64,000 nucleotides of DNA. Source: Pseudovibrio sp. M1P-2-3. Lineage in GTDB: Bacteria; Pseudomonadota; Alphaproteobacteria; Rhizobiales; Stappiaceae. Position 1 is the stretch's first letter; the number at the start of each line of letters is the position of its first letter. The translations under genes were made by a program, and so were the position numbers. The DNA lies in NCBI RefSeq assembly GCF_031501865.1, contig NZ_JARRCW010000001.1, positions 124,001 through 188,000 of the forward strand, written 5' to 3'. The notes below the pieces were generated by a model that was not told where the DNA came from, searched no databases, and saw only the letters and a list, made by a program, of their open reading frames with translations. Of the stretch, positions 12,562 through 46,598 are shown in pieces.

Positions 12562-12660
12562 AGAGCGTATCGCCGAAAAGTGGATATTGGTTTTCGGGTA
12601 AAGATACGCGGTTAAACAATAGGTAAAAGCAAGTGAGATGTTTCAATAAAACGTCTCACT
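12562..12660 (+). repeat. Palindromic intergenic repeat, copy 1
   Basis: About 99 bp with nested inverted repeats: GCGTATC ... GATACGC outside and CCGAAAA ... TTTTCGG inside, then an AT-rich tail ending TTTCAATAAAACGTCTCACT. A second, diverged copy in opposite orientation lies at 25824-25919, and the last 21 bases are the same in both. Similar hairpin units with CCGAAAA...TTTTCGG are, from memory, common between genes in Hyphomicrobiales. Confidence 0.75.
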
Positions 12661-12751
12661 GCTTGAGTTGATAAGTTCGGGGCAACGGGTGTTTTGCAGT
12701 GCCCTTAATTAGATAGGGCTAAAATCAAAAATAAAAGCGAAACCATCGGAT

Positions 12752-17388: not shown

Positions 17389-19803
17389 ATGACTGACGTT
17401 GCCAGCGCTTCCGCTAGTTCTTCCAAATCCTCCAAAGTATCTCCTGAGGTTGCCACGCGAATTTCCCGCGCTATTGCCGGAGAGATCGGGTGTAGGGCTG
17501 AGCAGGTGAGTGCTGCCGTTGGGCTGCTGGATGAAGGCTCCACCGTGCCGTTCATCGCCCGTTACCGCAAAGAGGTGACAGGGGGGCTGGATGATACCCA
17601 GCTGCGCACTTTGGAAGAACGGTTGATTTATCGCCGCGAGATGGAAGACCGGCGCACCGCCATCTCCAAGTCAATTGAAGAGCAGGGCAAGATGACGGCG
17701 GATCTTGCAAAACAGATATTTACTGCAGAAAGCAAGTCCACGCTGGAAGACCTGTACCTGCCATACCGCAAGAAACGCAGGACTAAAGCTCAGATAGCCC
17801 GTGAAGCAGGCTTGGAACCTCTTTCTGACCTGTTGCTGAGTGATCCGACAAGGAATCCGGAAAAGGAAGCGGCCAGTTTCATTGACGCAGAAAAGAAGTT
17901 TGCTGATGTGAAAGCTGTTCTGGACGGTGCCCGACAAATTCTTATGGAGCGTTTTTCTGAGGATGCCCAGCTGGTTGGTAAGCTGCGTAATTACCTTTCT
18001 CGCAACGGACAGGTGAAAGCCTCCGTTGTCAAAGGCAAGGAAGAGGAGGGGGCCAAGTTTTCCGATTATTTCGAGTTCGGAGAAAAGTGGCAGAAAATCC
18101 CGAGTCACCGCGCACTTGCGCTGCTGCGCGGACGTAATGAGGGGATTTTGTCCCTTGATCTTGTGGTGGATGAGGACGATCCCTCGCCAGTCAAACCCGT
18201 AGAGCAGATGATCGCCAATTCGGCGGGGATAGCAGACAGAGGCCGCCCCGCAGACAAATGGCTTGGCGAAGTTGTTCGTTTTGCATGGAAGGCAAAGATA
18301 GCGCTGCACTTGGAAGTGGACTTGATGGGGGACCTTCGGATGAAAGCCGAGGAAGAAGCCATCAATGTGTTTGCCCGCAATTTGAAGGACCTTCTGTTAG
18401 CCGCCCCAGCCGGTCCACGTGCTACGCTGGGCCTTGATCCGGGTATTCGCACCGGCGTTAAAGTTGCGGTGGTGGATGCCACAGGTAAGCTGGTGGACAC
18501 AGCAACCATCTATCCGTACCAGCCAAAAATGGATGTGGTCGGTTCCATGGCTACCATCAAGGCGCTGATCGCCAAGCACAATGTAAGCCTGATCGCCATT
18601 GGTAACGGCACAGCCAGCCGCGAGACAGACAAGCTTGCCGCCGACGTTCTTAAGGAAATTCCAGCGGACAAACGCCCCACTAAAGTGATGGTGAACGAGG
18701 CAGGCGCCTCTGTTTATTCCGCTTCGGCCCTTGCTGCCAAGGAAATGCCGGATGTGGATGTATCGCTGCGTGGAGCCGCCTCCATCGCCCGCCGCCTGCA
18801 AGACCCATTGGCGGAACTGGTGAAGATCGAACCCAAATCCATTGGGGTGGGGCAATATCAGCATGATGTGAACCAGACCAGGCTGGCCCGCTCGCTGGAG
18901 GGTGTGGTGGAAGATGCGGTGAATGCTGTTGGCGTGGACCTTAACACAGCATCCGCGCCGCTTCTGGCGCATATCTCCGGCCTGTCTCAAAGTTTGGCCA
19001 GCGCTATTGTGGAGCACCGCGACACTGCCGGGGCCTTCAAGAACCGCCGCGCCTTGCTCAAAGTGCCACGCCTTGGCCCTAAAGCGTTCGAACAATGCGC
19101 AGGTTTCTTGCGTATCAGCGATGGAGATAACCCGCTGGATTCGTCCTCCGTTCATCCGGAAGCCTATCCGCTTGCCAAGAAAATCATCAAGGCCTGTGGC
19201 CGTGATCTGCGTGAGATTATGGGCTCAAACGCACTGGGTACTTTGGACCCGAAAGAGTTTACCGATGAGCGTTTCGGACTTCCCACTGTAAAGGATATCT
19301 TCGCAGAACTGGAAAAACCGGGCCGCGATCCGCGTCCAGAATTCAAAACCGCCAGTTTCCAAGAGGGTGTTGAAAAAATCAGTGACCTGAAATCTGGAAT
19401 GTTGCTGGAAGGGACCGTTACAAACGTCACCAATTTTGGGGCCTTTGTAGATATTGGCGTCCATCAGGATGGCTTGGTGCATGTGTCCCAGCTGGCTGAC
19501 AGGTTTGTTGACGACCCGCACAAGATTGTGAAGGCAGGGGACATCGTCAAAGTGCGCGTTGTGGAAGTGGATGTATCCCGCAAGCGCATTGGCCTGACCA
19601 TGAAAAAGGACAGCGGCGAAGCGCGTGAGCAGGTGAGGGAACGCCAGTCTCAAAGCAACCAGCGCGGCGGGCGTGGTAATGGGCCTAAAGGGAGTGCACC
19701 AAAAGGAAAGGGCGGTAAACCAGCCCCTAAACAAGGCGGGACAGGAACCAACAATGCCATGGCTGCTGCTCTTGCAGCTGCGTTTAATAAACCGAAACGA
19801 TAA
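17389..19803 (+). CDS. tex: Tex-family RNA-binding transcriptional accessory protein
   Basis: 804 residues with the Tex domain order: N-terminal helical Tex domain ([17 protein letters not shown]), YqgF/RNase-H-like domain ([14 protein letters not shown], ~350-480), helix-hairpin-helix repeats (~500-590) and a C-terminal S1 domain ([18 protein letters not shown], ~665-735). The last ~75 residues are a Gly/Lys/Pro-rich low-complexity tail. Tex binds nucleic acid and is related to eukaryotic Spt6; loss affects toxin expression and stress tolerance in some bacteria. ATG 17389 is chosen; an in-frame GTG at 17338 would add 17 residues not typical of the family. The ribosome site is weak. Confidence 0.93.
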
Positions 19804-19812
19804 TATATGGAG

Positions 19813-19849
19813 AGGCGGGACCCAAAGTATGGGCTAACAGGTTCCGCCT
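19813..19849 (+). terminator. Hairpin after tex
   Basis: Stem AGGCGGGAC / GTTCCGCCT (one mismatch) ten bases after the tex stop, followed by TTTAG. A weak intrinsic terminator is likely. Confidence 0.5.
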
Positions 19850-19879
19850 TTAGTACCTGTCATTCGAACAGTTTTGGAC

Positions 19880-19909
19880 GTAAATCCGTTTAAGAGAAAC
19901 GGGATTTAC
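19880..19909. terminator. Hairpin between tex and ompW
   Basis: Near-perfect stem GTAAATCCGTTT / AAACGGGATTTAC (one bulged G) with loop AAGAG, ten bases beyond the stop of the convergent ompW-like gene. It probably serves ompW on the minus strand. Confidence 0.5.
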
Positions 19910-19918
19910 GAGGCGCCA

Positions 19919-20605
19919 TCAGAAGCGGTAGGTGATACCGGCACCAATCAGCCATGGATTGAGATCAGCCTCGCCTGTTAATGTGTCATTGCCAGCTTTT
20001 ACCTCAAAATCGGGTTCAAGGAAGATCTTCTTCACATCAAGGTTTATGCCCCAATGCTCATCAAACATGTAGTCGAAACCAGCTTGTAGAGCTAAGCCAA
20101 ATGTATCTTCAATATCAAGTTTATCTACATTCTCTCCATCTTGATTGTAGAAGATGGTGTAGTTTACGCCGGCACCGATGTACGGTTTGAAACTACCAAA
20201 GTTTGTGAAGTGGTATTGAAGGGTCAAAGTAGGAGGTAGAACCCAAGTATCGCCAACTTGCCCAACGTGTGACGCTTCACCTTTACCGTAAACTTTTGCT
20301 TTGGTTGTTCCCAAAATGAGTTCAGCAGCAATATTCTCATTAAAGAAGTAAGTGATATCCAGCTCAGGAATCACCGTATCTGAATAGGAAAGGTCTGAAC
20401 CGGGAATTGCGTCAATGGAGCCGTCATCTTCTGTAATCACACCCAGAGCGCGCACACGAATTTGCCAAGGGCTTGGTGCGGCAAAGGTCTCTGCGGCAGT
20501 CTTTTCCTTCGTGTCATATAAGTCTGCTGCACTTGCTTGAGCAATTGGTGCCATGAGTGCAGTTGCGGCCATCAGGCCCATCATCCATTTCACTTTAATC
20601 TCCAT
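19919..20605 (-). CDS. ompW: OmpW-family outer membrane protein
   Basis: 228 residues: signal peptide (M-M-G-L-M-A-A-T-A-L-M-A-P region with A-Q-A-S-A cleavage area), then an eight-stranded beta-barrel pattern of alternating aromatic and polar residues. Family motifs include W-Q-I-R-V-R-A-L-G-V-I, L-P-P-T-L-T-L-Q-Y-H-F, K-P-Y-I-G-A-G-V-N-Y-T-I-F-Y and a terminal N-P-W-L-I-G-A-G-I-T-Y-R-F, whose final phenylalanine is the usual outer-membrane sorting signal. OmpW proteins form narrow hydrophobic channels thought to pass small apolar molecules. ATG 20605 fits a signal peptide best; an upstream start at 20632 would add nine residues. Confidence 0.9.
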   Translation of the reverse strand: MEIKVKWMMGLMAATALMAPIAQASAADLYDTKEKTAAETFAAPSPWQIRVRALGVITEDDGSIDAIPGSDLSYSDTVIPELDITYFFNENIAAELILGTTKAKVYGKGEASHVGQVGDTWVLPPTLTLQYHFTNFGSFKPYIGAGVNYTIFYNQDGENVDKLDIEDTFGLALQAGFDYMFDEHWGINLDVKKIFLEPDFEVKAGNDTLTGEADLNPWLIGAGITYRF

Positions 20606-20785
20606 TAAAAGTAGTGAGTCGATATTGCACAACTATATCTGGAGTGTTCTAGTGATTAGTACGTGGTATTAGGTCGCAGTCTGGAGACTTTGACTAAAAT
20701 TTTATTAGGAGCGTCAGGCGGAACGCTTACGATCCCTCTGATAACTGATCGTATCCATGAGCAAATTGCAGACATAGGAATATAT

Positions 20786-21247
20786 ATGAGAGCTAGAAAA
20801 GCCGTTGAGGCAGATGCAGCAGAAATAAGTGTTTTCTTAGTTGAGCTTACTGCACTTGGAAAACGGAGGCTTCCAAGTGATGAAGAATATGTTCGCTCCC
20901 ATTATATTTTGCATACAGACAAAATTCAGTGCACGGTTGTTGAAGATATCGATGGTTCTCTTCTGGGGCTGCAAATTCTGAAAATGGCTAGTGAGAACAA
21001 CCCTTATGATGTCACGCCGGGCTGGGGGATGATTGGAACCCATGTAAACCCCAAGGCAGGGCGACAGGGTGTTGGAAAGCTATTGTTTTCGGCCACTATT
21101 GAAGCTGCAAGAAATGCAGGGCTACAGAAAATTGATGCCACAATAGGCGCCAGTAATCTGGAAGGGCTTGGCTATTATGAGGCCATGGGATTTCGGAGCT
21201 ATAAGACCTCAAAGGATGTTATCAGCAAATGCCTTGAGTTGAACTAA
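20786..21247 (+). CDS. GNAT-family N-acetyltransferase
   Basis: 153 residues beginning M-R-A-R-K-A-V-E-A-D-A-A-E-I, a standard GNAT start, with acetyl-CoA motif G-T-H-V-N-P-K-A-G-R-Q-G-V-G-K-L-L (~85-101) and N-L-E-G-L-G-Y-Y-E-A-M-G-F near the C-terminus. The sequence around G-L-Q-I-L suits the L-amino-acid (phosphinothricin acetyltransferase-like) branch, but the substrate is unknown. ATG 20786 has AGGA in range; the in-frame extension to 20663 encodes a different, unlikely N-terminus. It converges with the methyltransferase pair. Confidence 0.82.
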   Translation: MRARKAVEADAAEISVFLVELTALGKRRLPSDEEYVRSHYILHTDKIQCTVVEDIDGSLLGLQILKMASENNPYDVTPGWGMIGTHVNPKAGRQGVGKLLFSATIEAARNAGLQKIDATIGASNLEGLGYYEAMGFRSYKTSKDVISKCLELN

Positions 21248-21300
21248 GCGGCCCCTCGTTTTAATGGAAACACTTCACCGCTTTAACTCATTGCCTGCGC

Positions 21301-21321
21301 GTATCTCTATCAGGGAGATAC
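21301..21321. terminator. Short hairpin after the GNAT gene
   Basis: Stem GTATCTC / GAGATAC with a 7-nt loop, 53 bp after the GNAT stop, in the gap between convergent genes. A second inverted repeat (21366-21395) overlaps the stop of the methyltransferase gene. Neither has a good T-run. Confidence 0.35.
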
Positions 21322-21385
21322 ACTGTCATAACTACACCAGTTTACGAGTATTGACTCTTCAAGGGAGGAGTAGGCCGTGTATGGC

Positions 21386-22492
21386 TTACTCTCCTGTATA
21401 AGTCAGCAACATTGCGACGCTCACGTAATGGAACTGGTAGCGATCAGGGTACTGGACAATAAGTTCTTCCGATCGTTTAAACACGGCCTCAACAAGCTCT
21501 TCTGCCCTCCCGGTTTCTTCCAGTGCCTCTTTGAGAACGGCTTCCATGAACGCCCGGAAGAAGTTTGTCATTTGGTGGGCGTATTGCTCCACATTTCCAT
21601 CCTTCTTGAACTGCTCCACAAACGGGAGCTGCACCTCATAGGATTCCGTTCGTTCTATTTTAAAGGCTGAAGCGAACTTGCCGGTTCCAGCTGTAACAGG
21701 GGCCAGCAACTGATCCAGTGTTCTGAACGTCACTGGGTGGTAGTATCTCTCATAGATGTCCCGGGAGATCTCTCCTTTTTCCACCAGTTCTATCAGGGCG
21801 TCATTTGGGGCTTCGAATATTGTTAGCGCGTTCTTGATCCTATCGTCTTTCCCAAAGACCTGAACAAGAAGTTTGCCGCCACTCACCAGCTCATGCGCGC
21901 GTGCCTGAAGAAACAGCTCCAGATCATTGTGAGCGCACTGCAGAAATGTACCAAAATGCTCTTCATTCGCATTTTCTACATTCAAGGTGGGGCGTTTTTT
22001 CGCGCACACAATGTGGTTTTTAATTCGCTCAACAGGGCGATGAGAAAGAAAACCTATTGCATTAAAAGTTGTAATCAAGTGCGCGGAATGAGCTGGCAAG
22101 AGCTGGTCATACATGGAGCCGCTGACGATCCCGCCAAAAACTAAAGGGTCGGTAAATGGAGGTGTGGACCTATACCCCATAGCCTCTAAAATTTTGGAGT
22201 AATCGTTGCTTGGTAGGTCGCTTTCAACAATGGAAATGGGGCCGGAGTGGTTTTCGCGCAAAGCTTTGACAACATGATCCAGCATCCGCATGGAATTACC
22301 ACCCTCAGAGCAGCCAATGTCAACAAGGCGGAACTGTGTTTCCGAAGGCAGCTCTTTGACTGCCTCCCCTAACCATGGAAGAACGTGGGCAATTGTATTC
22401 CATTGTGGCGTGGAGTTTTTATCGTAGAATTGTTGACCAACCATTCCAGCTGTTGTTGCCTTAATGGGGGAATTAGCCGCTTCGTTGCTCAT
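21386..22492 (-). CDS. SABATH-type SAM-dependent carboxyl methyltransferase, paralogue A
   Basis: 368 residues resembling the plant SABATH family (salicylate, jasmonate, benzoate and indole-acetate carboxyl methyltransferases; Pfam Methyltransf_7). Visible family marks: F-Y-D-K-N-S-T-P-Q with the SAM/substrate Ser27 and Gln30; SAM motif L-V-D-I-G-C-S-E-G-G-N-S (Asp58); E-S-D-L-P-S-N-D-Y matching plant N-D-L-P-G-N-D-F (Asp92-Leu93); and G-S-M-Y-D-Q-L-L-P matching G-S-F-Y-x-R-L-F-P. The aromatic-clamp tryptophan of the plant S-L-H-W-L-S segment is replaced by Phe (A-I-G-F-L-S-H-R-P), so the substrate is open. The likely reaction is methyl-ester formation on a small carboxylic acid. The next gene upstream encodes a clear paralogue; the spacing is 121 bp. 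Confidence 0.8.
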   Translation of the reverse strand: MSNEAANSPIKATTAGMVGQQFYDKNSTPQWNTIAHVLPWLGEAVKELPSETQFRLVDIGCSEGGNSMRMLDHVVKALRENHSGPISIVESDLPSNDYSKILEAMGYRSTPPFTDPLVFGGIVSGSMYDQLLPAHSAHLITTFNAIGFLSHRPVERIKNHIVCAKKRPTLNVENANEEHFGTFLQCAHNDLELFLQARAHELVSGGKLLVQVFGKDDRIKNALTIFEAPNDALIELVEKGEISRDIYERYYHPVTFRTLDQLLAPVTAGTGKFASAFKIERTESYEVQLPFVEQFKKDGNVEQYAHQMTNFFRAFMEAVLKEALEETGRAEELVEAVFKRSEELIVQYPDRYQFHYVSVAMLLTYTGE

Positions 22493-22613
22493 CTTTGCTC
22501 TTCCCGATCGTGGGTTTCTCCAATGTTCAGTCTAAAAGTCTATGGTTCTCAAGTTAAAATATAATGGTAGATGAAGAGCCTTTATGGGTGTTTTCAGATC
22601 CTGTCGTTTTGGG

Positions 22614-23723
22614 CTATCTGCCTTGATCACCCAAGTATGTCAGAAGTATTGCGTGGCAGTGAAATTGGAATTCGTAGTGCTTTGGTGATTGGTAGATAAT
22701 CTCTTCAATTCGCATGTAGACGTCTTCCACAAGCTGAGTAGAATGATCCGTAGTTGCCAAGGCATCGTACAGGTCACTTTCCGTATAAGCTCGCACGAAA
22801 TTGGCCAGCTGGTGCGCATATTCAGATGTATTGTTATCCCTTTTAAACTGAACGACTGCTGGTACATCTACATTATATGTTTCAAAACGGTCCACATGAA
22901 ACAGATGTGAGAACTTCCCTCCCGTTGTAACTGGGGCCAAAAGTTCAGCCTGATCTCTAAGATAAGAGGCTCGATAGAACTTTTCATAGGTATCTCGCGG
23001 TATTTTCCCCGCTTCCACCAGTTCGATCAGTGCTTCGTTTAAAGTATTTGTCGGGGCAGGGTATTCTCCAAACTTGGTACTTCTTGCAAAGCACTGCACC
23101 AATAATTTGCCCCCTTTAACGAGCTCGAAGGCCCGGGCCTCAAAGAATTGTTCCAAATCCAAACGGGCCTGCTTGGCACAGATTTCGAACTCCTTGGCTG
23201 TAACCTTACCTTTTCCGGAAGGTGAGGGAATTCCGCCAGGGATTATGTGGTCCTTTATTCTCTCGGCTGGGCGGCGAGACATATAGGCAATTGCATTGAA
23301 GGACATGGCCAAATGAGTTGAAGCTGGCGGGAGCAGTTGGTCATACATCGAGCCGCTGACAACACCTCCAAATACATGGGGGTCTGTGAAGGGAGGGGCT
23401 GACCTATGCGCAATTGCATTCAAAATTGCCGTGTAGTCATTGCTTGGCACATCGCTTTCTACAATTGAAACGGGACCTGAATGCTTCCGGCGCAAATTAT
23501 CTACAATAAACCCCATAGCGCGCAAGGAGTTGCGCCCCTCAGCGCAACCGAAGTCAGCAACACGCACATGTTCGGCGTCTGGCAGGTCTGCAACCGCCTC
23601 TTCCAGCCAGGGGAGTATGTGGGAGATGCTGTTTGATTGTGGGCCAGAGTTCTTGTCGTAAAACCCGCCACCACGCATGCCACGGGTTGCCGACTTGATA
23701 GTCTGGGCAGAAGGGAGGCTCAT
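22614..23723 (-). CDS. SABATH-type SAM-dependent carboxyl methyltransferase, paralogue B
   Basis: 369 residues, co-linear with paralogue A: F-Y-D-K-N-S-G-P-Q, V-A-D-F-G-C-A-E-G-R-N-S, E-S-D-V-P-S-N-D-Y, G-S-M-Y-D-Q-L-L-P, then F-N-A-I-A-Y-M-S-R-R-P, where the plant clamp Trp is Tyr rather than Phe. It carries an extra proline/glycine-rich loop (G-G-I-P-S-P-S-G-K-G-K) in the substrate-cap region that differs from A, which suggests a different or wider substrate. ATG 23723 is chosen for its AAGGA site; an ATG-less extension to 23789 gives 22 atypical residues. First of the tandem pair on the minus strand, downstream of the NTF2-like gene. Confidence 0.8.
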   Translation of the reverse strand: MSLPSAQTIKSATRGMRGGGFYDKNSGPQSNSISHILPWLEEAVADLPDAEHVRVADFGCAEGRNSLRAMGFIVDNLRRKHSGPVSIVESDVPSNDYTAILNAIAHRSAPPFTDPHVFGGVVSGSMYDQLLPPASTHLAMSFNAIAYMSRRPAERIKDHIIPGGIPSPSGKGKVTAKEFEICAKQARLDLEQFFEARAFELVKGGKLLVQCFARSTKFGEYPAPTNTLNEALIELVEAGKIPRDTYEKFYRASYLRDQAELLAPVTTGGKFSHLFHVDRFETYNVDVPAVVQFKRDNNTSEYAHQLANFVRAYTESDLYDALATTDHSTQLVEDVYMRIEEIIYQSPKHYEFQFHCHAILLTYLGDQGR

Positions 23724-23834
23724 AGCACTTATCCTTTTTGAGGGAGCTTGAGTTTTCCTAAGACTAGTGTGGAAGGAGGGGGGGCTCAAATTAAGTTATA
23801 TAAATGTGAAATTATGAATAACAGCATGTGTCGT

Positions 23835-23880
23835 GAGGGGGCGGAAAGTCCGGATGGATGCGCCGGATTTTTGCCCCCTC
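23835..23880 (-). terminator. Long hairpin after the NTF2-like gene
   Basis: Outer stem GAGGGGGC / GCCCCCTC with an inner complementary stretch (TCCGG / CCGGA), 28 bp after the NTF2-like stop and about 110 bp before methyltransferase B. It may terminate or attenuate transcription between these genes. Confidence 0.5.
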
Positions 23881-23907
23881 ATTGGTGGAGAGATGGTTAA
23901 GGAGCAA

Positions 23908-24297
23908 TTAAGCGCTTCCAGCCTCTTCCCTAACGTTTTCAAGGTGCCAGATTTTTGAGACAATTTTCCACCCTTCTTCCCCCTTCACAAATCCAAGGTG
24001 GTCAACAAACACGTTTTGGTGAAACCGTAATCTGACCTTAACAGTGGCACTGATGGGGGAAAGCCAATCTATCAGAAGGACCTCATCCTCCCGTTCTTGC
24101 CCTTTGCTCGCGGGGGAAGTACGGGAGCCAACATCGCGGATATAGCTTTCAATGGGTTCAACGAACAGCCTCCCTTCATCAGCATCGAAAAGGCTGGAGG
24201 TTTTATGGAAAACTGCATCGAGCATCTTTGTGTCACAAAAGTAGAGCGCGTCGAAATATGTTCCTACAGATTTTAGCAGGTCGTGTTGTTTGTTCAT
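23908..24297 (-). CDS. NTF2-like / putative lumazine-binding fold protein
   Basis: 129 residues with the pattern of the putative lumazine-binding (SnoaL/NTF2-like) family: an N-terminal helical part Y-F-D-A-L-Y-F-C-D-T-K-M-L-D-A-V-F-H, then alternating strands ending F-V-K-G-E-E-G-W-K-I-V-S-K-I-W-H. Such proteins are small cone-shaped dimers acting as hydrolases, isomerases or binding proteins; no catalytic role can be read here. It lies divergent from the GlxA-type regulator (96 bp between starts) and upstream of the two methyltransferases in the same direction, so it may belong with them. ATG 24297 is chosen over GTG 24303. Confidence 0.75.
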   Translation of the reverse strand: MNKQHDLLKSVGTYFDALYFCDTKMLDAVFHKTSSLFDADEGRLFVEPIESYIRDVGSRTSPASKGQEREDEVLLIDWLSPISATVKVRLRFHQNVFVDHLGFVKGEEGWKIVSKIWHLENVREEAGSA

Positions 24298-24393
24298 TGT
24301 CACATCCGTTGTTGTCTTTCATGGATACTTGGCAAAAATTCCATGATAGGTGAGAATGCGCCACGCCGTGCTGCGCCAAATTTGAGGGAAAAA

Positions 24394-25398
24394 ATGCCAA
24401 AACGAGATGCGAGAGACTTTCGGAGCTCACCAGTTCGTGTTGCTGCTTTGGTCTATGACAACCTGTGTACTTTTGAATATGGCATAGTGTGCGAGGTATT
24501 TGGTTTGCCACGGCCGGAACTGGGCGGAGACCTCTATCACCTCTCCACCGTGGCAGTTGAAAGTGGCCCCATCCGCGTAGTTGGCGGTATACTGGTTGAA
24601 GCTTCGGGTACTCAAGAAGACTTGTTGAAGGCTGACTTGATTGTTGTTCCTGGATGGAAGGGGAAGGATGAACCCGTTCCGGAAGTACTTTGCCAGATAA
24701 TCAGCTCTGCCCATGCTCGCGGAGCAAGGTTACTCTCTATTTGTTCAGGGTCTTATGTTCTGGCAGCATCAGGGGTTCTGGATGGAAAGCGCGCCACAAC
24801 CCACTGGCAGTACGCGCAACATTTTAGTGAAAAGTTTCCTAAAGTGAGCGTTGAAACCAATGACCTTTATGTAGATGAGGGGAACATCATAACCTCTGCT
24901 GGAAGTTCAGCGGGAATTGATGCCTGCCTGCACGTTGTGAGGAAGGATTATGGTTCGAAAGTAGCCAATTCCGTAGCTCGCCGTCTTGTCATGCACGCAC
25001 ACCGGCAAGGTGGGCAGGCACAGTTTATCGAACAGCCCGTGCCAAAGGACACAAACAAACACAGCCTTTCAATGCTCATGGACCGTCTTCGTGAAAACTT
25101 GTCGGACCTTCACGATATTGAGACCATGGCTCGCGTTGCTCAAATGTCCTCAAGAACGTTTCAGAGGAAGTTTCTCGCACTCACTGGCACTCCTGCCAAA
25201 CAGTGGCTGATACAGGAGCGGGTGGCCAGATCCTGTAGTTTGTTGGAAACGACAAAATTGGCATTAGAAACGATCAGCTATGAAGTGGGGTTTCCAAATG
25301 CCGAGGCAATGCGTTACCACTTCAAACAGTCCCTTGGAGTAACGCCGAAAGAATACAGAAGAGTTTTTTCTGCAAAATATAATAATGTGTATGTGTAA
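24394..25398 (+). CDS. GlxA/FtrA-type AraC-family transcriptional regulator
   Basis: 334 residues in two parts: an N-terminal DJ-1/PfpI-like domain (~15-190), with S-I-C-S-G-S-Y-V-L-A-A-S-G-V-L-D-G containing the nucleophile-elbow cysteine and T-T-H-W following it, and a C-terminal AraC DNA-binding domain (~225-325) with two helix-turn-helix motifs (M-A-R-V-A-Q-M-S-S-R-T-F-Q-R-K-F and I-S-Y-E-V-G-F-P-N-A-E-A-M-R-Y-H-F) and the P-K-E-Y-R-R end. ATG 24394 has GAGGGA five bases upstream. Divergent from the NTF2-like gene, it is the obvious candidate controller of the methyltransferase locus; the ligand is unknown. Confidence 0.88.
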   Translation: MPKRDARDFRSSPVRVAALVYDNLCTFEYGIVCEVFGLPRPELGGDLYHLSTVAVESGPIRVVGGILVEASGTQEDLLKADLIVVPGWKGKDEPVPEVLCQIISSAHARGARLLSICSGSYVLAASGVLDGKRATTHWQYAQHFSEKFPKVSVETNDLYVDEGNIITSAGSSAGIDACLHVVRKDYGSKVANSVARRLVMHAHRQGGQAQFIEQPVPKDTNKHSLSMLMDRLRENLSDLHDIETMARVAQMSSRTFQRKFLALTGTPAKQWLIQERVARSCSLLETTKLALETISYEVGFPNAEAMRYHFKQSLGVTPKEYRRVFSAKYNNVYV

Positions 25399-25520
25399 TT
25401 CTTATATGAGAGGCTCGATGCCCTCATTTTCTTTAACATTAAAGTTATTGAAAGTTATTTTTATTTCGCTGTGGTTGTAGGCATTATCCTTTTCGGAATA
25501 CAGCGAGAAGGAATAGACTC

Positions 25521-25667
25521 ATGGAAAATAAGCAATTTCGCATGCAAGTTTCTTGCAATGTTCAAAGGAAACCTTCAGGTGTTGTCTCCAGTAAAACTCC
25601 ACCTGGTGAAGGTTCTGGCGGTGGTGGAAGTGGTGGCTGGGGCGGGGGCGGTGGCGGTGCTGGCTGA
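25521..25667 (+). CDS. Candidate 48-residue glycine-rich peptide
   Basis: Short gene with an AGAAGGA ribosome site before ATG 25521. The N-terminal half is leader-like and polar (M-E-N-K-Q-F-R-M-Q-V-S-C-N). The C-terminal ~20 residues are almost only Gly with Ser and one Trp (G-S-G-G-G-G-S-G-G-W-G-G-G), ending A-G. The layout recalls precursors of ribosomally made modified peptides such as microcin B17, but no modifying enzyme of a known class (YcaO, lanthipeptide, radical SAM) is seen nearby, and I do not recognise the peptide. A perfect hairpin follows 70 bp after the stop. It could also be a cell-surface or chance ORF. Confidence 0.45.
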   Translation: MENKQFRMQVSCNVQRKPSGVVSSKTPPGEGSGGGGSGGWGGGGGGAG

Positions 25668-25736
25668 ACTGGCAGTGATCCAGCATAAATACAAAAGGGT
25701 AACTCAGCCTAGTGATTAACAAACAGGGAAGACAGT

Positions 25737-25763
25737 TTTAATACCGTCTGGAGCGGTATTAAA
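25737..25763. terminator. Hairpin after the glycine-rich peptide gene
   Basis: Perfect 10-bp stem TTTAATACCG / CGGTATTAAA with loop TCTGGAG, preceded by AGTT and followed by GGTATG. It may act as a terminator in either direction, although a T-run is lacking. Confidence 0.45.
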
Positions 25764-25823
25764 GGTATGAAGCGTGAAGCATTTGTCGTTGCGCTACCGT
25801 AAAGCTGTCCTCCCGCCCAAAGT

Positions 25824-25919
25824 AGTGAGACGTTTTATTGAAACAGTTCAGTGCTTTAAGCTATTGTTTAGGCGCGTACCTTTAATTAGAAAACGGTATC
25901 CACTTTTTGGAGATACTCT
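25824..25919 (-). repeat. Palindromic intergenic repeat, copy 2 (inverted)
   Basis: Reverse-complement copy of the element at 12562-12660; by eye about three quarters of positions agree, with the terminal TTTCAATAAAACGTCTCACT identical. The inner CCGAAAA/TTTTCGG hairpin is decayed here, which marks it as an older copy. It fills the gap between the peptide gene region and the secreted-protein gene. Confidence 0.7.
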
Positions 25920-25932
25920 CGGTTCTCAGGTT

Positions 25933-26709
25933 CTACTCATCTCCATAAAAGGCATAGGCGCCTTGCATAATATAGGTTCCACAGGCAAAGCCAGCCACCA
26001 AGCCGCCACCTAAAACAAGAGCGCCTCTTTCATAGGTTACAAAGGTAAAGCTATTTTGAAGTTGCCCGGAAAGGCCATCCTCATAGGTATGGATAGGATC
26101 ATAACGAATGGGCCCGCGCTCCATAATTGCGTTTACCTCGCAGATTTTCCTAGAGTTGGAGCCATTAGTTGAAGCGAGAAATGTGACTTTATAGTTGTGC
26201 CCTTGCTTTGAAACTATGAGTTCGCATGAATCTTTAGGCTTCCCCGGTGGGGTTTGATATTTATGAACACAGCGGCTGCCCCAGTTGCCAATGAAAGGGT
26301 CCCCTTCTTCAAAGGTTTTAGGCCTTGCTGCAGAAGACGCTACATTTGAGGTCGTTTGAGTGTTTAGTTGATGCTGTACACCTTGATAGGGCGTGGGAAG
26401 TTTGGGCCGAGCCTGCGCTGCTTTTTGAGAAAGAACAGCGAACTGCTGTGCTGTTAAATAGCCCGTGGCCGGGAAGTGGTTATCCAGTTGGAAACGGGTG
26501 ATAGCCACTCGGGTGGCTGCTCCCATGCGCCCATCGCTTGCATCTTGAAAATAACCAAGAGTGTGTAACAGGTCTTGTGTATCAATGGTACGCCATTGGG
26601 TTGGTACGCCCGAGTTATTATAGATGCTTTGCGAATAAGCAGGGGAGAGCGGGAGGCTGAAAACCATCAGGGCAAGTGCCCAAGATAACTTTGAAGGCAA
26701 ACTTAACAT
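25933..26709 (-). CDS. Secreted protein with peptidoglycan-binding domain
   Basis: 258 residues. A signal peptide (L-S-W-A-L-A-L-M-V-F-S-L-P-L with A-Y-S-Q cleavage) is followed by a peptidoglycan-binding (PF01471-like) domain at ~40-95 (L-L-H-T-L-G-Y-F-Q-D-A-S-D-G-R-M-G then I-T-R-F-Q-L), a Pro/Thr/Ser-rich linker, and a C-terminal domain with G-N-W-G-S-R-C...C-E-L-I-V-S that I do not recognise and that has four cysteines likely paired in the periplasm. ATG 26709 places the signal peptide at the start; a start at 26769 adds 20 residues. No operon partner. Confidence 0.72.
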   Translation of the reverse strand: MLSLPSKLSWALALMVFSLPLSPAYSQSIYNNSGVPTQWRTIDTQDLLHTLGYFQDASDGRMGAATRVAITRFQLDNHFPATGYLTAQQFAVLSQKAAQARPKLPTPYQGVQHQLNTQTTSNVASSAARPKTFEEGDPFIGNWGSRCVHKYQTPPGKPKDSCELIVSKQGHNYKVTFLASTNGSNSRKICEVNAIMERGPIRYDPIHTYEDGLSGQLQNSFTFVTYERGALVLGGGLVAGFACGTYIMQGAYAFYGDE

Positions 26710-26975
26710 GCAACCTGTTCCAACCTCTATATCCTGACCAACGGCTCTGGAAACTCCGATGGACAACAATCTGGCGTTCCAAGCGGTACCTTTACGCCCT
26801 TTTGGGTGGAAGTTGAAGTATAAATTGCAATTTAAAGTTTAGGTAATTGTGCCTTGCTGCTTGCGGGTTTTCTAACGGGTGCCAGTAACGCTCGCCCTGA
26901 AGCATTTTTCCATTGCATTTTGGGAGCGTTCGCGGCATCAGTGAGCGCTTGTTGTAAGCTCCTGAGGAATTCATC

Positions 26976-28310
26976 ATGACCACTTCAAACCCTAACAAGC
27001 CCCAGCAAAGTCTTTTCTTTCGCGCAGAAGATGCTGCGCGGCGTGGCATTGACAGGGTTATGGACCTTGATGAAAAGGAAGCCTCCAAAATTTTCACCCG
27101 ATTTGATGCGCAGAAGATCATGGCTCAAGCGCGGGCCTTGGACAAGAGCGCTAGCCGTTTTGCCTCCCGCCCCGCTTTGCTTGGTAAAACAGTTTCCGTC
27201 AAAGACCTTTTTGAAGAAGAGGGCGAAGTGACAAGCGCGGGGTCTCCCTACTACCTCTCCCGCTATCCGGCGGGCAAGGATGCTCGCGTTATTGCGCGGG
27301 TGAAAGCCGCCGGCGCTTTGCCGTTTGGCCGCACATCCATGAGTGAATTGGCTTATTCTGGTCTGGGGCTTAACCCTTACTGGGGCCACCCTGCCAATGC
27401 CATTGATCCGAAACGGATTGCCGGTGGCTCGTCTTCCGGTGCTGCGTTGAGTGTCGCCTATGGCTTGTGTGATGGAGCACTGGGTACTGACACAGGTGGT
27501 TCCATTCGTGTTCCAGCAGCACTGAATGGAATTTTCGGCTTCAAACCTACACGCCAATCTGTTCCCATGGATGATGTTTTCCCTCTTGCCAGCTCGTTTG
27601 ATTGTGCTGGCCCTCTTGCCAGCAGTCTGGACCTGTGCGCAGAGCTGTATGGGGTCATCAGTGCGCAGCCGCGCCCTGCCGCTCAGTATGATCGTGTGGA
27701 AGGGCTTCGCATCGGCCTGCTTGAAACGGTGATGATGGAAGATCTCGATTGTAAGGTTGCCAGTGATTTTCACCGTTCAGTTGAGAAACTAAAAGCCGCT
27801 GGAGCCGAGATCACTTCAGTAGAAGCACCGATCCTCGTGGAAGCGCTTGAAGCCATGCGTATGTTGGTTGGAGCGGAAGCCTATGCTGTGCACCAAGCAC
27901 ATATAGAGGGGTTAAAGCAGCTGGGGGATGAGGATATCATGTCCCGCCTGCAACGGGGTGAAACTTTCAATGCCCAGCAGCTATCGCAGGCGCAAACACT
28001 GCGCCAGCAGGCTATTGAGGCCTATGAGACGCTGGCGGCTGACTATGATGTGTTGATCGCACCAACGGTTGCCGCCGCAGCGCCAACCATTGCAGAAGCT
28101 CTGGAGGATTTTGCAACACATAATCTGCGTATGCTGCGCAACTCCTCCATTATCAATCTGGTGGATGGCTGTGCTGCCACAGTCCCAATGCATGAGCAAG
28201 GTACACTTGGAACCGGATTTATGGTGATAGGAGCAGCACGCAGCGACTGGAAAGTTCTTGAGCTGGCGGCTTTGATTTCCGAAGAAGTGACTCCCGGCAG
28301 CGGCTGTTAA
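26976..28310 (+). CDS. Amidase (amidase-signature family)
   Basis: 444 residues of the GatA/AtzF-like amidase-signature fold. The Ser-cisSer-Lys triad is visible: lysine in K-T-V-S-V-K-D-L-F (~70), I-A-G-G-S-S-S-G-A-A with the bridging serine, and T-D-T-G-G-S-I-R-V-P-A-A with the nucleophilic serine. It hydrolyses an amide to acid and ammonia. No gatC or gatB neighbour is present, so this is not the tRNA amidotransferase subunit; the substrate is unknown. GAGGAA precedes the ATG by seven bases. Transcribed alone, convergent with the SDR gene. Confidence 0.88.
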   Translation: MTTSNPNKPQQSLFFRAEDAARRGIDRVMDLDEKEASKIFTRFDAQKIMAQARALDKSASRFASRPALLGKTVSVKDLFEEEGEVTSAGSPYYLSRYPAGKDARVIARVKAAGALPFGRTSMSELAYSGLGLNPYWGHPANAIDPKRIAGGSSSGAALSVAYGLCDGALGTDTGGSIRVPAALNGIFGFKPTRQSVPMDDVFPLASSFDCAGPLASSLDLCAELYGVISAQPRPAAQYDRVEGLRIGLLETVMMEDLDCKVASDFHRSVEKLKAAGAEITSVEAPILVEALEAMRMLVGAEAYAVHQAHIEGLKQLGDEDIMSRLQRGETFNAQQLSQAQTLRQQAIEAYETLAADYDVLIAPTVAAAAPTIAEALEDFATHNLRMLRNSSIINLVDGCAATVPMHEQGTLGTGFMVIGAARSDWKVLELAALISEEVTPGSGC

Positions 28311-29404: not shown

Positions 29405-29845
29405 CTACCACCGACTATAGGGGAGAAACTTGCCACTCATGACCACCTGAATTCTATCTCCCTTTTCATGGGGGATTTTTTCAACGGACATATCAAAATC
29501 AATTGCACTCATAATGCCGTCCCCGCCCTTCTCCTGAATAAGCTCCTTCAAAGTCTCTCCATAAACGCCAACAATCTCGTAGAAGCGGTAGATACAGGGA
29601 TCACTGGGTATTATTTGTGCAAAGGTTTTGGTCGGGTACTGGGTAAGAGCTGCCTCCGCCGCCTCTGGTAAATCCAAAAGCTGGGTTATCTTCTTCGCGT
29701 TCTCAAGTGGAAAGCTGTTCATCCCAAGACAGGCGGAAACGGTGAAAACTTCAGAAAGGCCTGCGACTTCGGCAATCTGAGACCAGCTCAAACCGGTTCT
29801 ACGCTTACGCTCAAAAATAAATTCGGTTACCTCAAGTTTATTCAT
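29405..29845 (-). CDS. cynS: Cyanate hydratase (cyanase)
   Basis: 146 residues, the normal size for CynS. N-terminal helix-turn-helix-like domain (L-S-W-S-Q-I-A-E-V-A-G-L-S) and C-terminal catalytic domain with Y-R-F-Y-E-I-V-G-V-Y-G (catalytic Arg and Glu) and M-S-A-I-D-F (catalytic Ser). It converts cyanate plus bicarbonate to ammonia and CO2 via carbamate, giving detoxification and nitrogen supply. ATG 29845 has AAGGA six bases upstream; the longer frame to 29902 adds 19 unlikely residues. It lies directly downstream of an FNT-family channel gene (72 bp). Confidence 0.95.
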   Translation of the reverse strand: MNKLEVTEFIFERKRRTGLSWSQIAEVAGLSEVFTVSACLGMNSFPLENAKKITQLLDLPEAAEAALTQYPTKTFAQIIPSDPCIYRFYEIVGVYGETLKELIQEKGGDGIMSAIDFDMSVEKIPHEKGDRIQVVMSGKFLPYSRW

Positions 29846-29917
29846 GTTTTTTCCTTGGGGAAGTGTCAAGGGTAGGGTGTTCCGGCTGAACAAACATGCC
29901 AACCGGAAAACAGAGGT

Positions 29918-30760
29918 TTATTCAGCAGGGGCAGCGTAGCCATCAGCAGCAGGTTCTGAGTGCTTAGCAGCGCGTGGAAGGTGTGTTGCGTATAAGGTTA
30001 AGCCAACAAAAGCCAAACCACCCACAAGGTTTCCGATGACCGTGGGAATCTCGTTCCAGAGCAGATAATCCATGACGGAGAAATCACCACCAAGCATCAG
30101 ACCGGATGGAAACAGGAACATGTTTACAATGGAATGCTCGAATCCCATATAGAAGAACAGCATAATGGGCATCCACATGGCGATGACTTTGCCTGAAACG
30201 GAGGTGGACATCATCGCCGCTACAACGCCTGTTGAGACCATCCAGTTACATAAAACCCCGCGGATAAACAAAGTCAGCATGCCAGCAGCGCCGTGGTTTG
30301 CATATCCTACTGTGCGTCCTTCACCAATGGTGCCGATTTTTTGCCCCACTGCGTTTGGAGCCTCGGAAAACCCGAAGGTAAAGATGATGGCCATCATCAC
30401 TGCCACGGTAAAGGCTCCGGCAAAGTTGCCGCAAAACACCAGTCCCCAGTTCCGCATAATCCCCTGCGGGGTCACGCCGGGGCGCTTGGCGATAAGGGCA
30501 AGGGGCGCAAGGGTGAATACCCCGGTGAGCAGGTCAAAGCCCAATAGGTAAAGAAGACAAAAGCCAACGGGAAACAGGATGGCACCAACCAATGGCTGGC
30601 CCGTTTGCACGGTAATGGTTACTGCGAAGGCCGCAGCTAGGGCTAGAATTGCACCAGCCATAAACGCGCGGATCAAGGTATCTCGTGTCGACATCAGGAC
30701 TTTTTGCTGTCCGGCATCAACCATTTTACCAACAAACTCGGGGGGAGGTAAGTAAGACAT
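29918..30760 (-). CDS. Formate/nitrite transporter (FNT) family channel
   Basis: 280 residues, six hydrophobic segments plus the FNT signatures: P-P-P-E-F at the N-terminus, G-V-L-C-N-W-M-V near TM4, and G-F-E-H-S-I-V-N-M with the central pore histidine. FNT proteins are pentameric channels for formate, nitrite or hydrosulfide. The gene is immediately upstream of cynS with the same orientation; I infer uptake of cyanate or export/import of a related small anion, since no CynX-type permease is present. ATG 30760 has AAAGGA seven bases before it; the upstream extension to 30847 is not family-like. The C-terminal tail is Ala/Pro-rich. Confidence 0.9.
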   Translation of the reverse strand: MSYLPPPEFVGKMVDAGQQKVLMSTRDTLIRAFMAGAILALAAAFAVTITVQTGQPLVGAILFPVGFCLLYLLGFDLLTGVFTLAPLALIAKRPGVTPQGIMRNWGLVFCGNFAGAFTVAVMMAIIFTFGFSEAPNAVGQKIGTIGEGRTVGYANHGAAGMLTLFIRGVLCNWMVSTGVVAAMMSTSVSGKVIAMWMPIMLFFYMGFEHSIVNMFLFPSGLMLGGDFSVMDYLLWNEIPTVIGNLVGGLAFVGLTLYATHLPRAAKHSEPAADGYAAPAE

Positions 30761-31288
30761 TGGAAATCCTTTGAGTTGAAGCAATGAAACTCTAAAAAGG
30801 TTCGTGGGCGACGCCCAGCGTTCTGTCACTTGAAACTGGGTGTGCAATGCGGCTCACGCACGGGCCTTCAGGTCGTGGGTTATGTCAGCTTTGGTGTTTG
30901 CAGCATTGCGGGTGATTGGCGCCTTTGCCGATCATGAAAATGGGTATCAAAACGAACCAAATGAAGTTGAGCAAAGACCATGCCAACGAGCATTTTTCTC
31001 GGTTGAAAACGGATAAGTTCTTAAGAAGAAAAGTGTTTTATGCCAGTGTATGAAAATGTGGCACCCATAGCTAAACCCGTGATTGCTTAAACATGCACCG
31101 ATTGTAACTGGCAGTGTCCATATTGTGAGCAAAGTCTGGAGCAGTTGGGAGCTGGCGTAGCTCACCGCCCTAAACTGAAGTCCATTAAATGCACATTATT
31201 TGTATAACTAATTGTATTACATAAATAATAGTTATTTTCACATGTCCTCTACCGGTCCGTCCTTTGGGCAGTCATGAGAGGAGAAAAT
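30761..31288. other. 528-bp gap holding divergent promoters
   Basis: Between the FNT-cynS operon and the divergent DUF1906 gene. I see no credible gene: minus-strand frames here have poor composition and no ribosome sites. The last 100 bp before the DUF1906 gene are strongly AT-rich (31180-31245), as expected of a promoter. No clear operator was found. Confidence 0.5.
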
Positions 31289-31974: not shown

Positions 31975-32030
31975 AAAGAGTTTAGAGCACGTTGCATTCA
32001 CGCTGCGCACTCTAACTTTTATATTGTTAT

Positions 32031-32054
32031 CGTTTGATTGAATCCAATCAAACG
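32031..32054. repeat. Palindrome CGTTTGATTG / CAATCAAACG at convergent gene ends
   Basis: Perfect 10-bp arms with a 4-nt centre, embedded in a wider sequence ending GGAACACGCTTTA. From memory this is a recurrent intergenic palindrome in Hyphomicrobiales genomes. It lies ten bases beyond the stop of the DEAD-box helicase gene and may end its transcript. Confidence 0.6.
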
Positions 32055-45190: not shown

Positions 45191-45438
45191 TTTGCTTTTG
45201 ATAGCTCTGGAGGTGAATATTTGCAGAGTTTGAGAAAATCGCAGTGCTCCTCAAACTCGCGATCCACCGGCATTCCGTGGCTTCGCGCCTTCCTATAGAT
45301 CACTGCCACGAAGATATCGGCAAGGGTGAACGCATGCCCAACGGCAAATTTACTCTCTTTCCACAAAAGGCTCTTCAGTTTGGGCAATGTTTGGGAGCAC
45401 CATCTGGCACGCAGGTCTTTCTTTTGAGCGGCCTGTAA

Positions 45439-46598
45439 TACCAACGGCACTTATAATTGACCTGTATGCGCCCAATTTCGTCTACCGATTGATGTGATTG
45501 TGTGGGGTTGTTGAATAAGCTTATTCCAAGCGGAACAGGCGGCATCGACAATTTCCTGGTAGTCTTGAAAGGTTCGGTTAGAGAGCCAGTTTTGCCGTAA
45601 GTACTGCCAAACATTTTCAACCGGGTTGAACTCCGGAGAACGGGGTGGGAGCAGCAAGATGGTTATATTATCAGGCAACTTCAGTTTTGCTGTTGTATGC
45701 CAACCCGCTTGATCCATCAGGACCACTGCGTGCGCCCCTTTGGTAATGTTTCGGCTGATCTCTGCCAGATGTAACTGTATGACATTTGTATTGGCTTTGA
45801 GCAAAACAAGAGCAACCCCTTTGCCGAGGGCGGGGCAGATGGCACCGAATACATAGGTTGATTGATAGCGCCCGTCGCTGGGAGCCCGTGGTCTCGTTCC
45901 TTTTTTTGCCCACCTTCTGGTGAGCCCATTTTTTTGACCAATGCGGGCTTCGTCCTGCCACCAGATTTCCATGGATGTTTGTGAGGGCAAGCGCGCTTTT
46001 ATTTCTTTAAGCCGGGCATGGAAGTCTTTTTATATGTCTCCATAACTTGCTCGTCCTGTGCCGGGTGCTGTGGCCGAACGCTGACCCGAGAAAACCCCAG
46101 AACTCTGAGGAGGCTTGAAATAGCCCTTTCGCTATAACTGGCCCCAAACTTCTGCTCGATCACAACTTGCAGATCTCGCCGCCGCCAGCGAATTACGCCG
46201 TGCTGTTGTAAATCAGGTCCAGCCTCAACCAGATCTGCAAATTCAGCCATTTGCTCTTTATTTAACCACCGGGCACGGCCTGGGATCTTACGATTGTACA
46301 GGCCCTGCGGCCCTTCTGCGTTAAACCGATGCACCCAGTCTCGCAGTGTTTGGCGGTCCATGCCGCCCATGCGTGCCGCCTCCAAGCGCGACAACCCATC
46401 ATAAACAGCAGCAAGAGCAAGAAGGCGGCGGCTCTGCCTGACATCCTTACTTTGACAAGCAAGAGTTCGTAACGAAGAAGCATCATAGTCTCGGCGCAAT
46501 GGGATCGCTGACATTGGGAATCTCCTTTCCCAATGTTGAATCACAATTCAAGTGATTTGGGAATCCTCATCCCGAGTCAAAAACAGGTGCCGTTGGTA
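45439..46598. mobile_element. IS630-family insertion sequence
   Basis: About 1.16 kb, bounded by inverted repeats TACCAACGGCAC / GTGCCGTTGGTA, which extend imperfectly to ~26 bp. TAA is repeated outside both ends (45436-45438 and 46599-46601). IS630 elements insert at TA, so either TA is duplicated within that triplet or the duplication is three bases. The element carries one transposase in two frames on the minus strand and sits inside a GST gene. The intact ends and clean target repeat point to recent insertion. Confidence 0.9.
45451..46514 (-). CDS. IS630-family transposase, two frames joined by -1 frameshift
   Basis: The upstream frame (46514 to 45999) has paired helix-turn-helix regions (A-A-R-M-G-G-M-D-R-Q-T-L-R-D-W; winged-helix W-R-R-R-D-L-Q). 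The downstream frame (45990 to 45451) holds the DDE catalytic domain: first Asp in W-W-Q-D-E-A-R-I-G, second in V-L-M-D-Q-A-G-W-H, Glu in P-P-R-S-P-E-F-N-P-V-E-N. Slipping -1 on TAAAAAG (46032-46026 on the minus strand) joins E-T-Y-K to K-D-F-H-A-R-L-K, restoring the sequence expected of a single ~350-residue protein. This matches the frameshifted expression known in some IS630 members. Start ATG 46514 (M-S-A-I-P-L). Confidence 0.87.

What the first reader, a model, noticed from the sequence alone, without database searches (positions are those of the whole stretch)
21386..25398. Tandem SABATH-type carboxyl methyltransferases with NTF2 protein and own AraC/GlxA regulator
Seen: two tandem genes for ~369-residue proteins that carry the plant SABATH marks (N-S-x2-Q, E-S-D-[LV]-P-S-N-D-Y, G-S-M-Y-D-Q-L-L-P), an NTF2-fold gene in the same direction, and a divergent GlxA-type regulator. 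Known: SABATH enzymes make methyl esters of hormones and scents in plants (salicylate, jasmonate, IAA) and are uncommon in bacteria. Inference: the locus makes a methyl ester signal or volatile, or inactivates a carboxylic-acid signal, in response to a ligand sensed by the regulator. The clamp Trp is replaced by Phe in one copy and Tyr in the other, and the cap loops differ, so two substrates are likely. This is my best candidate for an undescribed system.
Basis: partly seen in the sequence, partly recalled or inferred. Interest (0 to 1): 0.75.

Follow-up and report, generated by a model that had tools for sequence, protein, structure and literature searches.

The report
Strain-specific pair of carboxyl-methylating enzymes
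A bacterium carries two side-by-side genes for enzymes that probably cap small organic acids as methyl esters, a bacterial branch of a family best known from plant scents; the pair is real, but the regulator gene next to it seems to belong to a different gene pair.

Summary
In detail: MT1 (21386-22492) and MT2 (22614-23720) match Pfam Methyltransf_7 (SABATH) far above cut-off (E 4.6e-38, 7.4e-33) and keep the SAM-site residues and carboxylate Gln. The block is absent from this site in 15 of 15 genus relatives. The Phe/Tyr clamp marks the whole 34-row clade, so it does not separate two substrates. MT1, MT2 and a third gene 61 kb away form one lineage (bootstrap 98-99). A clue from outside the window: a branch of the clade ends an operon with an aryl-CoA ligase/diazotase-like fusion and a formate/nitrite-family channel. 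Most likely two diverged carboxyl O-methyltransferases for small, perhaps aromatic, acids: new members of a known family.

The parts
21386..22492 (-). MT1, Methyltransf_7/SABATH-type carboxyl methyltransferase, 368 aa
   Evidence: PF03492 E 4.6e-38, 131.7 bits, cut-off 29.8; best PDB chain by sequence 1m6e SAMT E 1.3e-17; Foldseek ranks 1-24 all chains of this enzyme fold, on a low-confidence model
22614..23720 (-). MT2, diverged paralogue of MT1 (50-51% identity), 368 aa
   Evidence: PF03492 E 7.4e-33; best PDB chain 5f2o, mycobacterial fatty acid O-methyltransferase, E 7.3e-23; sister to MT1, bootstrap 98, SH-aLRT 81
23834..23881 (-). strong hairpin between NTF2 and MT2, possible transcription boundary, no U-run
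   Evidence: MFE -26.4 kcal/mol for the 108-nt stretch, z -3.3, 1 of 200 shuffles folds as well; not listed as terminator-like; no Rfam match up to E 1
23908..24303 (-). NTF2-fold protein (Lumazine_bd_2); partner of the regulator rather than of the methyltransferases
   Evidence: PF12893 E 2.7e-25; close orthologues 61-70% in G049, G097, G092, each beside a divergent regulator orthologue without a methyltransferase
24343..25398 (+). GlxA/FtrA-type AraC regulator (DJ-1/PfpI + HTH_18); start 24343 or 24394
   Evidence: PF01965, PF12833; NCBIfam FtrA 453.3 bits, cut-off 425; orthologues 47-50% beside NTF2 in 3 genomes
19804..26975 (.). 7.2 kb between tex and the amidase that is absent from this site in relatives (ompW, GNAT, MT1, MT2, NTF2, regulator, PG-binding protein)
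   Evidence: 10 of 15 genus relatives show tex and an amidase relative (44-58%) near each other, 6 of them within 400 bp; 0 of 15 have MT1, MT2 or NTF2 there; 4 of the 15 stretches were shortened by contig ends, two badly (4.2 and 8.0 kb)

Best explanation
MT1 and MT2 are two diverged paralogous class I SAM-dependent carboxyl O-methyltransferases of the Methyltransf_7 (SABATH) family. Each binds SAM through the conserved Asp and Ser positions, holds the acceptor carboxylate with the conserved N-terminal Gln in a pocket whose clamp Trp is Phe or Tyr, and releases a neutral methyl ester that can cross membranes or evaporate. The acceptor is most likely a small, perhaps aromatic acid; this last step is inference from a related branch's operon. 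The genes are a strain-specific accessory insertion together with unrelated neighbours. The NTF2-GlxA pair beside them is an independent regulator/target module that need not control them. Shown: family, residues, paralogy, absence of the block in relatives, separateness of the NTF2-GlxA pair in the three genomes that have it. Inferred: methyl-ester chemistry, substrate class, biological role.
For: Pfam calls far above cut-off; PDB sequence matches all to enzymes of this family; Foldseek ranks 1-24 all of this fold; Gln at the SAMT Gln25 position in 33 of 33 clade rows with data, Asp98 and Ser129 positions in 33 of 33, Asp57 position in 32 of 33; MT1+MT2 98/81 and MT1+MT2+third gene 99/97 support; absence of the block at the same site in 15 of 15 relatives; NTF2-GlxA pair without methyltransferase in 3 of 3; a branch of the clade in an operon with a benzoate-CoA-ligase-like/diazotase-like fusion, thioesterase, EamA transporter and formate/nitrite-family channel in 4 genomes.
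Against: No activity data. Some SABATH enzymes methylate nitrogen instead of carboxyl (xanthine enzymes; PMC9822479, passages). MT2's best solved relative by sequence is a fatty acid enzyme, which speaks for alkyl acids. In the careful tree the diazotase-operon branch groups with the Roseibium genes, not with MT1/MT2, so its substrate need not be theirs. The predicted model is poor (mean pLDDT 56.2). Gene order and a single direction do not exclude read-through from NTF2 into MT2 and MT1.
Confidence: 0.7

Rival explanations
1. One reading: the four genes are one ligand-responsive unit. The GlxA regulator senses a small acid and switches on NTF2, MT2 and MT1, which detoxify the acid or turn it into a signal as a methyl ester.
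For: Adjacency and single direction of NTF2, MT2 and MT1, divergent regulator. A new regulon can form in one strain; this was not excluded.
Against: Not seen in any relative examined; hairpin between NTF2 and MT2; gaps of 187 nt (NTF2-MT2) and 121 nt (MT2-MT1); the third paralogue of the strain has no such neighbour (L069).
Confidence: 0.15
2. MT1 and MT2 are fatty acid O-methyltransferases (FAMT-like) that make volatile medium-chain fatty acid methyl esters.
For: MT2's best solved relative is mycobacterial FAMT (E 7.3e-23); FAMT is also Foldseek rank 1 for MT1.
Against: FAMT groups with L124-L127 of the order, apart from the MT1/MT2 clade (SH-aLRT 100 for each); the FAMT Gln-Trp at the 150-151 positions is Gly-Phe and Ala-Tyr here; identity of the model match is 19-20%.
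Confidence: 0.25
3. One or both copies are decaying or catalytically altered duplicates without a methyl-transfer role.
For: MT2 has a long branch (0.78) and differs from MT1 at ten of the listed pocket columns (150, 151, 225, 226, 255, 256, 308, 311, 312, 347).
Against: Both frames are intact with the SAM-site and Gln residues kept; both are 368 aa, like the relatives.
Confidence: 0.07

Closest known systems
Plant SABATH carboxyl methyltransferases (Clarkia SAMT, PDB 1m6e; LAMT 6c8r; IAMT 3b5i)
   Same: Same Pfam family, length, SAM-site residues and carboxylate Gln; fold match on a weak model
   Different: Clamp Trp is Phe/Tyr in the whole clade, Tyr147 is Asn, position 150 is Gly/Ala/Val rather than Met/His; separate branch
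Mycobacterial fatty acid O-methyltransferase FAMT (PDB 5f2k, 5f2n, 5f2o)
   Same: Bacterial enzyme of this fold with solved structure; best hit of MT2 and best fold of MT1
   Different: About 20% identity, other branch of the tree, Gln-Trp pair replaced
Uncharacterised Roseibium-group and same-genus homologues at the VWA/Usp and rlmN sites
   Same: 39-48% identity to MT1, same pocket signature with Asn147 and Phe151
   Different: Single genes at conserved chromosomal sites, no tandem, no NTF2 or GlxA orthologue
Methyltransferase of the ligase/diazotase-like operon (L082, L076, L079, L145)
   Same: Same 34-row clade, 41-43% identity to MT1, Tyr at the clamp as in MT2
   Different: Sits last in a five-gene operon with divergent SDR, GST and PNPOx-like genes; the window strain has no such diazotase-like protein at E 1e-30

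Membership tests
Methyltransf_7 / SABATH family | PF03492 score above the curated cut-off | tested here: met
   131.7 and 114.5 bits, cut-off 29.8
Methyltransf_7 / SABATH family | SABATH fold (Rossmann core plus helical cap) | tested here: inconclusive
   Foldseek ranks 1-24 are all chains of this fold, best E 7e-13, but the MT1 model has mean pLDDT 56.2 and TM-scores of 0.52-0.64; MT2 was not modelled
Methyltransf_7 / SABATH family | SAM-site Asp57, Asp98, Ser129 and carboxylate Gln25 (SAMT numbering; roles recalled) | tested here: met
   all four present in MT1 and MT2
Methyltransf_7 / SABATH family | methyl transfer from SAM to a carboxyl (or nitrogen) of a small molecule | not testable with these tools
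   needs an enzyme assay
plant SAMT-type enzymes | Gln25-Trp151 carboxylate clamp (recalled) | tested here: not met
   Trp151 position is Phe (MT1) and Tyr (MT2); 0 of 34 clade rows have Trp
bacterial FAMT | clusters with FAMT and keeps the Gln-Trp at 150-151 | tested here: not met
   separate branch; Gly-Phe and Ala-Tyr instead
conserved four-gene MT-MT-NTF2-GlxA system | genes kept together in relatives | tested here: not met
   0 of 15 genus relatives at the same site; NTF2-GlxA without methyltransferase in 3 of 3; 0 of 54 other Methyltransf_7 loci with NTF2
FtrA-type regulator (NCBIfam NF006902) | score above the equivalog cut-off | tested here: met
   453.3 bits, cut-off 425
AvaA6 diazotase equivalog (for the relatives' operon, not the window) | score above the equivalog cut-off | tested here: not met
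   319.7 bits, cut-off 975; best family for that domain by far (next 137.6). The model also rings below cut-off in 12 of 14 control genomes and, at best E 8e-17, in the window's genome, as expected of an AMP-ligase relative: a works-like lead only

The most novel reading that the evidence does not exclude
The 34-row clade (Asn at the SAMT Tyr147 position in 34 of 34, Phe/Tyr at Trp151 in 34 of 34, Asn at Ala230 in 33 of 34) is a bacterial carboxyl methyltransferase subfamily devoted to aromatic amine or diazo acids. In three same-genus species and one genome of another order it finishes a mobile pathway in which a fused aryl-CoA ligase/diazotase uses nitrite, perhaps taken up by the operon's own formate/nitrite-family channel, to diazotise an aminobenzoate-like acid that leaves the cell as a methyl ester. 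MT1 and MT2 would then be strain-specific offshoots acting on related aryl acids.
Probability: 0.22. Interest if true: 0.7.

Novelty: new member of a known kind. Interest (0 to 1): 0.38.

Why it matters
Bacterial SABATH relatives seem little studied; among the 11 solved-structure sequences matched in each the only bacterial enzyme is FAMT. The genome here has five Methyltransf_7 genes, the most among 87 genomes of its family. If the clade methylates aromatic acids, it would link scent-type chemistry to these alphaproteobacteria. The related operon with a diazotase-like fusion and a formate/nitrite-family channel would point to an unexplored diazo or methyl-ester natural product that can be tested directly.

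Tried and rejected
Rejected: the four-gene system. Rejected: a shared promoter copied with the duplication; the local alignment of the two 120-nt upstream regions scores 29 and 118 of 2000 shuffles reach that, so no case. No Rfam family lies in 19500-27000 up to E 1. The promoter/terminator scan is at or below chance level (5 promoter-like found, mean 4.8 in shuffles; 1 terminator-like found, mean 5.1). The MT1 structure model was too poor for pocket modelling, so pocket statements rest on the sequence alignment. The family is Stappiaceae if G067 is the record of L006, which is titled Roseibium and whose contig has the length of G067:C1. In the plasmid collection MT1 has 3 relatives, at 23-25%. 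The NTF2 search of 385 class genomes at E 1e-25 found only the own genome, so the pair's conservation rests on three genomes. The NTF2 protein has no PDB match up to E 0.01. Literature: eight searches, each showing at most 20 titles; none of the titles or abstract starts shown describes a SABATH-type enzyme of Pseudovibrio, Labrenzia or Roseobacter; subscription papers and bioRxiv are not held. Passages of six papers were seen; searches gave nothing on bacterial SABATH function beyond a figure legend that names Mycobacterium marinum FAMT (PMC5873383). Rows dropped: L094:10274-10669 (a 131-aa fragment) was in the 77-row tree but left out of the residue counts and the 38-row tree; L115 (truncated) was left out of the 38-row tree; L142 (partial) was left out; L084, L085 and L120 gave no usable methyltransferase ORF with my ORF caller and are not in the trees. 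Not every Methyltransf_7 locus was fetched with wide flanks; loci of the MT1/MT2 clade outside the own genome were, one of them (L076) only 0.5 kb from the end of its contig.
Full report
Observation. The window holds four open frames at the stated place. MT1 (21386-22492, -) and MT2 (22614-23720, -) match Pfam Methyltransf_7 with E 4.6e-38 and 7.4e-33, 131.7 and 114.5 bits against a cut-off of 29.8; NCBIfam has no model that names them. The NTF2-fold gene (23908-24303, -) is Lumazine_bd_2, E 2.7e-25, and the regulator (to 25398, +) is DJ-1/PfpI plus HTH_18, above cut-off for FtrA. By sequence, 11 distinct PDB sequences match each enzyme at E 0.01 or better, all plant enzymes of this family (label recalled) or FAMT. 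The best is SAMT 1m6e for MT1 (1.3e-17) and mycobacterial FAMT 5f2o for MT2 (7.3e-23). A three-sequence AlphaFold model of MT1 is weak (mean pLDDT 56.2, pTM 0.59), but its Foldseek ranks 1 to 24 are all chains of this enzyme fold, best FAMT, E 7e-13.

How rare. The window's genome has five Methyltransf_7 genes. In the family, 38 of 87 genomes have at least one and no other has more than three. In the genus, counting the own genome, 11 of 16 have one. In the order, 39 of 397. With the MT1 protein as query, 13 of 385 genomes of the class, the own one included. Two complete genes in tandem occur only in the window's genome among the matches listed; G048 shows two pieces that look like one broken gene, and G035 shows a 131-aa fragment beside its gene.

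Relationships. A tree of 77 rows, then a careful tree of 38 rows, put MT1 with MT2 (98 bootstrap/81 SH-aLRT), both with a third gene of the same genome at G000:C1:209185-210264, 61 kb from MT2 (99/97), and these three beside the single gene that eight other genus members keep next to rlmN (98/96; context). Identity of MT1 and MT2 is 50-51%, so the duplication is not recent. The branch with the diazotase-like operon described below falls with the Roseibium-group genes, with weak support (83/77 for that larger group). The two remaining genes of the genome (L070, L071) lie on a far branch and have Asn for Asp57 and Ala for Gln25.

Residues. On the alignment to SAMT, the clade of 34 rows has Gln at position 25 in 33 of 33 rows with data, Asp98 and Ser129 in 33 of 33, Asp57 in 32 of 33, Asn at 147 in 34 of 34, Gly/Val/Ala at 150 (25/5/4), and Phe 28 and Tyr 6 at 151. 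The other 42 rows have Trp 30 and Tyr 12 at 151. Other pocket columns do differ between the two (150, 225, 226, 255, 256, 308, 311, 312, 347). The roles of the SAMT residues are recalled; [quoted passage not shown]

The four genes are not a unit. Close NTF2 orthologues (61-70%) were found in 3 of the 60 other genomes searched (G049, G097, G092). In all three a regulator orthologue (47-50%) lies beside it, divergently, and no methyltransferase lies in the 11.9-18.0 kb read (my ORF caller dropped the NTF2 frame of G049, tblastn shows it). G049 has no Methyltransf_7 match, and G097 and G092 have no MT2 match. Of the 54 loci fetched around Methyltransf_7 genes outside the own genome (L006, L072-L123, L145), 0 have an NTF2 match at E 1e-5, and regulator matches are weak: two short 26% ones by tblastn (L077, L096) and three of 28-30% by blastp in a separate cupin-type AraC cluster (L006, L091, L095). 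Thirty-one of the 54 belong to the MT1/MT2 clade. A search of 385 class genomes found no further close NTF2. At the same chromosomal site, 15 of 15 genus relatives have tex. Ten of these 15 also show an amidase relative near by (44-58%), six within 400 bp and four at 1.7-2.2 kb; none of the 15 has MT1, MT2 or NTF2. One has a 33% regulator hit about 12 kb from tex. Four stretches were shortened by contig ends, two of them badly. The window has 7.2 kb between tex and the amidase. A strong hairpin lies between NTF2 and MT2 (z -3.3); it has no U-run, and the simple terminator scan does not list it.

A functional clue from outside. In G021, G022 and G024 of the genus, and in G761 of another order of the class, a member of the MT1/MT2 clade (41-43% to MT1) ends an operon: a 1066-1074 aa protein, a 4HBT thioesterase, an EamA transporter, a formate/nitrite-family channel, then the methyltransferase. 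Divergent SDR, GST and PNPOx-like genes follow on the other side (domains were read on L082, and for the channel also on the window's relative; the others by identity). The genus and G761 versions are 60-88% identical in these genes, which speaks for transfer of the whole cassette. The front half of the large protein is nearest to benzoate-CoA ligases (299.8 bits, cut-off 375.25); the rear half is nearest to the AvaA6 diazotase model (319.7 bits, cut-off 975, next family 137.6). AvaA6/CmaA6 enzymes diazotise aromatic amines with ATP and nitrite (PMC10777205, abstract and passages). Against this reading: neither half reaches its cut-off; the AvaA6 model rings, below cut-off, in 12 of 14 control genomes; and the channel's NCBIfam scores, all below cut-off, favour the formate channel FocA (106.7 bits) over the nitrite channel NirC (49.6 bits), so nitrite uptake is only a guess. 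The rear domain occurs at E 1e-60 or better in 4 of 87 family genomes, three of them with this operon; the fourth (G014) is a 34% relative in a shorter frame; the window's genome has none. This is the only context I read in which the clade's neighbours speak about substrate. It suggests aromatic acids but does not prove it, least of all for MT1 and MT2.

Mechanism. Most likely each enzyme binds SAM, holds a small acid by the Gln and an altered aromatic clamp, and makes a methyl ester by proximity and desolvation, as is described for SABATH enzymes in general (PMC9822479, passages). What the esters do, whether volatile signal, export form or detoxification, is open. The NTF2-GlxA pair is best read as a separate regulator/target unit.

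Novelty. The family is known, in bacteria too (FAMT). The clade with the Asn/Phe-Tyr pocket has no characterised member in the listings. New member of a known kind, with a sharper lead in the diazotase-like related operon.

Noticed in passing
L082:436-10474, L076:515-9817, L079:9043-18499, L145:8998-18843: Apparently mobile cassette: aryl-CoA ligase/AvaA6-like fusion, 4HBT thioesterase, EamA transporter, formate/nitrite-family channel and a SABATH-type methyltransferase, with divergent SDR, GST and PNPOx-like genes; shared by three same-genus genomes and one genome of another order.
   Followed up: partly
window 29405-30847: Cyanate lyase beside a formate/nitrite-family channel (63-64% identical to the channel of the cassette above), about 6 kb from MT1/MT2; perhaps a cyanate uptake and hydrolysis pair.
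   Followed up: partly
L070:8783-9871 and L071:9439-10461 (own genome): Two more Methyltransf_7 genes with Asn for Asp57 and Ala for Gln25, one beside MoeA/MobA-like genes, the other in line with an ELFV-type dehydrogenase and a DAO-type oxidase.
   Followed up: partly
window 45433-46601 and L069:5810-6978: 96.7% identical 1.17 kb copy holding two short frames that look like a split IS630-type transposase (name recalled); the second copy lies 1.7 kb from the third methyltransferase gene.
   Followed up: partly
window 12614-12667, 25819-25869, 31994-32054; L069:6990-7132: Short dispersed repeat matches, 79-87% identical.
   Followed up: no
window 23834-23881: GC-rich hairpin between NTF2 and MT2; the 186-base stretch that holds it is single copy in the genome.
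   Followed up: partly
G000:C1 about 2.12-2.20 Mb: Open frames of 11849 and 9903 aa with repeated hits of an AMP-ligase-type model, probably very large NRPS genes.
   Followed up: no
L104, L108, L112, L114, L118, L121, L122: A second Roseibium-group Methyltransf_7 clade (23-26% to MT2, His-Trp at the 150-151 positions) at what looks like one conserved site beside an ABC exporter and an HTH gene.
   Followed up: no
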